In this document: in pieces, positions 32,358-48,905 of the stretch
How the letters are laid out: every line of letters begins with the position of its first letter
Numbering within the stretch: position 1 is the first letter of the stretch
Made by a program: the position numbers and the translations under genes
Source: Candidatus Woesearchaeota archaeon
Lineage (GTDB): Archaea; Nanobdellota; Nanobdellia; Woesearchaeales; JACPIF01
Length of the DNA: 64,000 nucleotides
Direction of reading: 5' to 3'
Assembly: GCA_016188215.1 (NCBI GenBank)
Contig: JACPIF010000011.1
Span: forward strand, 156,142 to 220,141
The notes under the pieces: generated by a model
Database searches by the model: none
Told to the model about the DNA's origin: nothing
What the model saw: the letters and a program-made list of their open reading frames with translations, nothing else

Positions 32358-32366
32358 GGTAAAAAG

Positions 32367-32466
32367 TAGCCCCGGGCAGATTCGAACTGCCGTCAGATGG
32401 TCCAAAGCCACCTATGCTTGACCGCTACAAACCGCAGAATCGCAATGCGATTTCTTCTACGGGGCT
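32367..32466 (-). tRNA. tRNA-Gln(TTG) with 27-nt D-arm intron (32430-32456)
   Basis: Exon 1 AGCCCCGTAG + exon 2 TGTAGCGGTCAAGCATAGGTGGCTTTGGACCATCTGACGGCAGTTCGAATCTGCCCGGGGCTA gives a 73-nt cloverleaf; 7/7 acceptor pairs. Confidence 0.85.
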
Positions 32467-48654: not shown

Positions 48655-48702
48655 GCTGAAATACTGAAACCAGTGTTATATAAAAGTATGCAAAGAAAAA
48701 AG

Positions 48703-48808
48703 CGCCCCGGACCAGACTCGAACTGGTGACCTTATGATCTCCATCGTGAGATAACAGTCATACGCTCTCTACAGCCTTGTTTCCAGGTACCTGCTGAGCT
48801 ACCGGGGC
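48703..48808 (-). tRNA. tRNA-Asn(GTT) with two introns: 20 nt in the D loop (48769-48788) and 13 nt at 37/38 (48739-48751)
   Basis: Exons GCCCCGGTAGCTCAGCAGGT + AGAGCGTATGACTGTTA + ATCATAAGGTCACCAGTTCGAGTCTGGTCCGGGGCG = 73 nt. Confidence 0.85.
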
Positions 48809-48905
48809 AAACTGTCTCGGTAGATTGATAGTTTCTTTATAAACATTTCTCTATCCGAAGTGCCAAAGAAAACATTTTTAAAACCATCATAGTTCCCATA
48901 TTATA

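What the first reader, a model, noticed from the sequence alone, without database searches (positions are those of the whole stretch)
48703..48808. tRNA-Asn(GTT) with two introns, one in the D loop and one at 37/38
Seen on the minus strand: GCTCA-GCAG-GT|A-CCTGGAAACAAGG-CTGT-AG|A-GAGC. The D stem (GCTC/GAGC) forms the outer helix, GCAG/CTGT the 4-bp central helix, and both bulges are 3 nt, so predicted cuts remove exactly 20 nt and restore the AGCAGGTA D loop. A second 13-nt intron (TCTCACGATGGAG) sits at the canonical 37/38 site. Two introns in one gene, with a second noncanonical case 16 kb away, imply a broad-specificity splicing endonuclease.
Basis: partly seen in the sequence, partly recalled or inferred. 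Interest (0 to 1): 0.85.

Follow-up and report, generated by a model that had tools for sequence, protein, structure and literature searches.

The report
Asparagine tRNA gene with two introns
An uncultured dwarf archaeon carries its only detected asparagine tRNA gene interrupted in two places, one of them unusual, and the cutting enzyme it seems to use is the simple kind that textbooks say should not handle many of the unusual interruptions in this genome.

Summary
Window 48808-48703 (minus) is a tRNA-Asn(GTT) gene with a 20-nt insert in the D loop (between positions 20 and 21) and a 13-nt insert at 37/38. The unconstrained fold of the precursor reproduces the D-loop bulge-helix-bulge (BHB) exactly, and removing both inserts gives a normal tRNA-Asn. 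The same D-loop BHB, with compensatory changes, recurs in tRNA genes of other DPANN archaea and of one Bathyarchaeota genome. No second tRNA-Asn was found in this 91%-complete genome. The inserts are therefore introns. Position 20/21 and genes with two introns are already described, so this is a new member of a known kind.

The inference to a heterotetrameric or three-unit EndA is not supported. The genome has one catalytic alpha-type EndA gene, without the loops linked to broad specificity, and nearly every genome searched in its order likewise has a single gene. This predicts an alpha4 homotetramer working alongside many D-, T- and anticodon-stem introns, several with relaxed motifs. That conflicts with the published rule that only (alpha-beta)2 and epsilon2 enzymes remove relaxed introns efficiently.

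In passing: rtcB, the ligase gene, itself carries two BHB introns. All splicing claims are inferred from sequence.

The parts
48703..48808 (-). tRNA-Asn(GTT) precursor gene, 106 nt; mature form 73 nt
   Evidence: Rfam RF00005 50.7 bits; spliced form called tRNA-Asn(gtt) by ARAGORN
48769..48788 (-). Intron 1, 20 nt, D loop between positions 20 and 21
   Evidence: BHB in the minimum-energy fold; 4/4 central pairs; same register in 10 of 12 comparable inserts
48739..48751 (-). Intron 2, 13 nt, position 37/38, relaxed BHB with almost no inner helix
   Evidence: central helix CUGU/AUGG, bulges UA|U and AG|A
48791..48794 (-). 5' strand of the D-loop BHB central helix (GCAG)
48771..48774 (-). 3' strand of the D-loop BHB central helix (CTGT)
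48753..48755 (-). Anticodon GTT
48836..48843 (-). TATA-like box TTTATAAA ending 28 nt upstream of the tRNA 5' end
   Evidence: read directly from sequence; function inferred
48692..48701 (-). T-rich stretch just after the tRNA, probable terminator
   Evidence: read directly from sequence; function inferred
   Evidence: central CCGT/GCGG, bulges AG|A and TT|T; spliced 73-mer called tRNA-Gln(ttg)

Best explanation
The gene is transcribed from its own promoter as a 106-nt pre-tRNA-Asn. The D-loop insert folds, together with the D arm, into a bulge-helix-bulge: D stem GCUC/GAGC outside, 4-bp central helix GCAG/CUGU, 3-nt bulges GU|A and AG|A, inner hairpin CCU/AGG. A second, relaxed BHB lies at 37/38. 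The single splicing endonuclease EndA, most likely a homotetramer of one alpha-type subunit, cuts both motifs after the second bulge nucleotide, and RtcB joins the exons to give the only tRNA-Asn detected in the genome. Shown here: sequence, fold, covariation, restored tRNA, single EndA gene, rtcB present. Inferred: transcription, cleavage, ligation and the alpha4 assembly.
For: The spliced 73-mer is a complete tRNA-Asn with G73, A37, D loop AGCAGGTA and anticodon loop CTGTTAA. Intact tRNA-Asn genes of the same phylum have the same D loop, e.g. GTAGCTCAGCAGGTAGAGCGTATGGCTGTTA. Among 12 inserts in 8-nt D loops from Woesearchaeota, Aenigmatarchaeota and Bathyarchaeota genomes, 10 form the 4-bp central helix in exactly this register (intron-shuffled expectation 0.3; tails swapped between sequences 6.1, P=0.001), with C16-G changing to U-A (L037, L055). 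In the order, 95 of 242 genomes match a D-loop-insert pattern against about 11 hits of the reversed control pattern. No second tRNA-Asn in the genome. One EndA gene with PF02778 and PF01974 domains and one rtcB.
Against: No RNA data. The 37/38 motif is weak and competes with a more stable hairpin. The D-loop motif has an unpaired A14 on the outer side. The published rule is that loopless homomeric enzymes cut relaxed motifs poorly (PMC6379350, PMC4033280). The assembly is 91% complete, so a missing beta gene or a second tRNA-Asn cannot be fully excluded.
Confidence: 0.9

Rival explanations
1. The introns are real, but the endonuclease is a heterotetramer or three-unit enzyme whose second subunit is missing from the draft assembly or too divergent to detect.
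For: In the published enzymes broad specificity goes with (alpha-beta)2 or epsilon2 (PMC6379350). The nearest solved structure is NEQ205, the alpha subunit of the N. equitans heterotetramer. The assembly is 91% complete.
Against: Nearly every genome of the order with a hit has a single PF01974 gene (118 of 120 genomes have a hit), among them nine genomes at least 98% complete that also have D-loop introns. The same search did find tandem alpha/beta-like genes in an Aenigmatarchaeota genome and two genes in Bathyarchaeota. A beta-subunit model finds only the alpha gene. The alpha gene keeps the acidic L10 loop (VDDEGD) that NEQ205 lacks.
Confidence: 0.2
2. The gene is a decayed or pseudo tRNA, and Asn decoding is done by another gene lost in assembly gaps.
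For: 9% of the genome may be missing; ARAGORN does not call the gene.
Against: All stems are intact, discriminator, anticodon loop and promoter elements are in place, both inserts sit at BHB cut sites, and D-loop introns of the same architecture recur across phyla.
Confidence: 0.03
3. The D-loop insert is retained as an expanded D loop in a functional tRNA.
For: The BHB is also a stable stem-loop, so a long D arm could in principle persist.
Against: It would separate G18G19 from A21 in the tRNA core, relatives have either the intact 8-nt D loop or an insert with paired BHB registers, and the conserved feature is the cut-site geometry.
Confidence: 0.04

Closest known systems
Archaeal tRNAs with introns at noncanonical positions, including 20/21, and with two or three introns (Crenarchaeota, N. 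equitans, ARMAN; PMC4090602, PMC4033280)
   Same: Short BHB introns, position 20/21 documented, multiple introns per gene documented, RtcB-type ligase present
   Different: Here the genome belongs to the Woesearchaeota order (DPANN) and encodes only one alpha-type EndA without the CSL or ASL loop
Nanoarchaeum equitans EndA (NEQ205/NEQ261 heterotetramer, PDB 3iey)
   Same: The alpha subunit is the closest solved sequence (E=4.6e-37)
   Different: No beta gene found; basic insert between catalytic Tyr and His absent; acidic L10 loop retained
Methanocaldococcus jannaschii EndA, alpha4 (PDB 1a79)
   Same: Single subunit with N-terminal and catalytic domains, similar loop lengths, L10 loop DADGD versus DDEGD
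   Different: The homomeric class is reported to need canonical BHBs; this genome has relaxed motifs at several positions
ARMAN-2 epsilon2 EndA with ASL loop (PMC12397907)
   Same: DPANN archaeon with noncanonical tRNA introns
   Different: Three-unit 395-aa protein with the ASL; here 200 aa and no ASL

Membership tests
Archaeal BHB tRNA intron | Removal restores a standard tRNA | tested here: met
   spliced 73-mer called tRNA-Asn(gtt), precursor not called
Archaeal BHB tRNA intron | 4-bp central helix with cuts after the second nucleotide of 3-nt bulges | tested here: met
   4/4 pairs at both introns; D-loop BHB is in the minimum-energy fold
Archaeal BHB tRNA intron | Strict hBHBh' with outer and inner helices in register (relaxed forms are also accepted in this family, PMC6379350) | tested here: not met
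   D-loop: inner helix 3 bp but A14 unpaired on the outer side; 37/38: outer helix 5 bp but inner helix 1 bp
Archaeal BHB tRNA intron | Conserved pairing across relatives | tested here: met
   10/12 in register, tails-swapped P=0.001
Archaeal BHB tRNA intron | Excision by EndA in vivo | not testable with these tools
   needs RNA or enzyme assays
alpha4 EndA | Single gene encoding one N-terminal plus catalytic unit of about 170-200 aa | tested here: met
   one PF01974 gene, 200 aa, PF02778 and PF01974
alpha4 EndA | Homotetramer | not testable with these tools
   inferred from gene content and retained acidic L10 loop
(alpha-beta)2 EndA | Second, structural subunit gene | tested here: not met
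   none found with PF01974 or the beta model NF007085; genome 91% complete
(alpha-beta)2 crenarchaeal or epsilon2 EndA | CSL or ASL insertion in the N-terminal domain | tested here: not met
   alignment shows no insertion, while Micrarchaeota and Bathyarchaeota homologues have one

The most novel reading that the evidence does not exclude
The order to which this genome belongs runs a broad-specificity splicing system with a loopless, single-gene (alpha4) endonuclease: it removes relaxed BHBs in D loops, T loops and anticodon stems without a beta subunit, CSL or ASL, contrary to the current rule. The ligase mRNA (rtcB) is itself a BHB-intron substrate in this genome, which could couple ligase supply to splicing.
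Probability: 0.5. Interest if true: 0.7.

Novelty: new member of a known kind. Interest (0 to 1): 0.5.

Why it matters
The tRNA-Asn gene alone is one more multi-intron archaeal tRNA. It matters as an entry point. In its order, D-loop tRNA introns are common while EndA is nearly always a single alpha-type gene, so the accepted link between enzyme type and intron diversity can be tested directly with one recombinant protein and a few transcripts. It also shows that standard tRNA finders miss such genes: ARAGORN called only 2 tRNAs in this window, neither of them this one, and gave one a wrong 5' end.

Tried and rejected
(1) Pseudogene or retained D-loop expansion: rejected on intact stems, restored consensus and covariation. 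(2) 21-nt alternative D-loop intron (CAGC/GCTG): kept as a minor alternative; relatives such as L055 do not fit it. (3) Okeania, Flavobacteriaceae and Calditrichota hits of the pattern scan: rejected; the Okeania hits are an upstream copy of GTAGCTCAG before an intact tRNA-Asn, and the other two show no tRNA context in the printed sequence. (4) A hidden EndA beta subunit: searched with PF01974 and NF007085, only the alpha gene found. (5) The Rfam search of the whole genome misses the tRNA-Asn itself, so tRNA counts from it are lower bounds. (6) My automated intron parser failed or chose odd solutions for Lys, Gln and some Leu genes; those I list were set by hand and checked. (8) A protein alignment call failed on a wrong strand and was not repeated.

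Full report
What is there. On the minus strand, window 48808-48703, lies a tRNA-Asn(GTT) gene. The Rfam tRNA model scores it 50.7 bits across the whole 106 nt with two insertions. The inserts are 48788-48769 (20 nt, between tRNA positions 20 and 21) and 48751-48739 (13 nt, between 37 and 38). Without them the sequence is a 73-nt tRNA with intact stems, D loop AGCAGGTA, anticodon loop CTGTTAA and discriminator G; ARAGORN names it tRNA-Asn(gtt), while it does not recognise the precursor. A TATA-like TTTATAAA ends 28 nt upstream and a T-run follows.

Fold. The 5' bulge GU|A is a clean 3-nt bulge. The 3' bulge AG|A faces an unpaired A14, so strictly it is a 1x3 internal loop. Shuffling the insert gives the central helix in this register in 0.45% of cases, and with an inner helix of 3 bp in 0.005%. 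The 37/38 motif is weaker: central helix CUGU/AUGG with two wobble pairs, inner helix of 1 bp, and an alternative hairpin about 3.4 kcal/mol more stable. It is a relaxed motif at the usual position.

Relatives. A pattern scan of genome contigs and of genomes of the same phylum found tRNA-Asn genes with D-loop inserts in Woesearchaeota, Pacearchaeota, Aenigmatarchaeota, Micrarchaeota, Bathyarchaeota and Thermoproteota. The hits in Okeania are explained by an upstream repeat of the box. Among inserts in 8-nt D loops (12 distinct sequences, not chosen for pairing), 10 form the 4-bp helix in the window's register; shuffling introns gives 0.3, and swapping tails between sequences gives 6.1 with P=0.001. 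Column 16 pairs C-G, U-A or U-G. Other relatives put the intron elsewhere in the D loop (for example L036 and L039, where GCTC pairs with a GAGC inside the intron), so the site is a recurrent target and need not be one ancient insertion.

Order-wide. In 242 genomes of the same order, 95 match a D-loop-insert pattern of tRNAs beginning GTAGCTCAG; the reversed pattern hits about 11 times. A minority of matches are intact D loops followed by an anticodon intron; I removed obvious cases by hand before the statistics. Of 120 loops kept (including relatives), 49 pair 4/4 in the register one nucleotide after the D stem and four before its 3' strand, against 2.9 expected. One handle of this order, G377, matches Candidatus Woesearchaeota JACPTD010000002.1 with the same offsets and letters, which places the genome in the Woesearchaeota order.

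Own genome. It has several other noncanonical introns, each restoring a tRNA that ARAGORN accepts: Gln(TTG) at 10/11; Lys(CTT) at 30/31, 37/38 and in the T loop; Lys(TTT) in the D loop, at 37/38 and in the T loop; Phe(GAA) in the D loop and at 37/38; Leu(CAG) in the T loop. The Lys(TTT) D-loop motif (GCCT GG|A UUCAGA GGGC AA|T) has practically no inner helix, so it is a relaxed motif at a noncanonical site. No second tRNA-Asn was found.

Enzymes. One EndA gene (L001:1186-1788, 200 aa, GTG start) has N-terminal and catalytic domains. 118 of 120 genomes in the order have a hit and nearly all have exactly one; the few second hits are mostly fragments or weak. The same search finds tandem two-gene or long fused enzymes elsewhere, so it can see second subunits. 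In the alignment the order's enzymes lack the insertion that Micrarchaeota and Bathyarchaeota homologues carry in the N-terminal domain, lack the basic insert of NEQ205 and of Aenigmatarchaeota between catalytic Tyr and His, and keep the acidic loop near the C-terminus (VDDEGD) that NEQ205 lacks. From PMC6379350, which describes the L10 loop and pocket as the assembly contacts, I infer self-assembly into alpha4. That identification of the loop is mine and untested.

Literature. Position 20/21 and multi-intron tRNAs are known (PMC4090602, PMC4033280). The reviews state that only (alpha-beta)2 and epsilon2 enzymes efficiently remove relaxed introns (PMC6379350) and associate noncanonical introns with those enzymes; the same review notes that an alpha'2 enzyme can remove a relaxed 37/38 intron from a full-length pre-tRNA. 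My searches of the held library showed no paper on the tRNA introns of this order or its EndA; the library lacks most subscription papers, so this is not proof of novelty.

Ligase. rtcB is present but its reading frame is broken twice. Both breaks are 31-nt inserts with 4/4 central helices, 3-nt bulges and 9-10-bp inner helices, and BHB splicing restores the conserved sequences HWGYGFPIG and GGIGFDINCGMR. Relatives have inserts at the first site that restore the same motif (G039, G003, G163), and G186 at the second. This lies outside the finding and was only partly followed.

Conclusion. For the Asn D-loop motif alone no broad specificity is needed, because the motif is nearly canonical; for Lys(TTT) and for the 37/38 site of Asn it may be.

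Noticed in passing
G000:C11:8562-10018 (L178), outside the window: rtcB, the RNA ligase gene, is broken by two 31-nt inserts with perfect BHBs; splicing by the BHB rule restores HWGYGFPIG and GGIGFDINCGMR. In three relatives (G039, G003, G163) an insert at the first site restores HxGYGFP/HxGYGLP, and G186 has inserts near both sites. The ligase needed for splicing may itself depend on splicing; only cbf5 pre-mRNA splicing was experimentally confirmed as of PMC2738675 (2009).
   Followed up: partly
G221, G232, G244, G292, G314, G068: In other genomes of the order the rtcB frame is about 760-1010 aa with a large in-frame insert near HMM position 50, probably an intein, close to the second BHB-intron site.
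   Followed up: no
L079 (G000:C13) and L175 (G000:C9): Two tRNA-Lys genes with three introns each; their T-loop introns share site and 3' end (TCTGGCGAAAG), the Lys(TTT) copy being much longer (81 nt versus 26), suggesting shared ancestry or transposition plus a nested insert. The Lys(CTT) 30/31 intron is at the split site reported for N. equitans tRNA-Lys(CUU) (PMC4090602).
   Followed up: partly
L036, L039, L040-L042, L050, L052, L053: A different D-loop intron of tRNA-Asn at about 15/16 in Pacearchaeota and Woesearchaeota, where the 5' D-stem strand GCTC pairs with GAGC inside the intron; Micrarchaeota (L029, L031, L034, L044, L054) have yet another D-loop insert.
   Followed up: partly
L123-L129 (Aenigmatarchaeota EndA): A basic insert between catalytic Tyr and His (for example KIKRGPKEAHEHTKW), similar in place to the NEQ205 insert, in lineages that also have D-loop introns.
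   Followed up: no
window 32366-32441: ARAGORN reports tRNA-Gln with a wrong 5' end because of the 10/11 intron; the true gene is 32466-32367 on the minus strand.
   Followed up: yes
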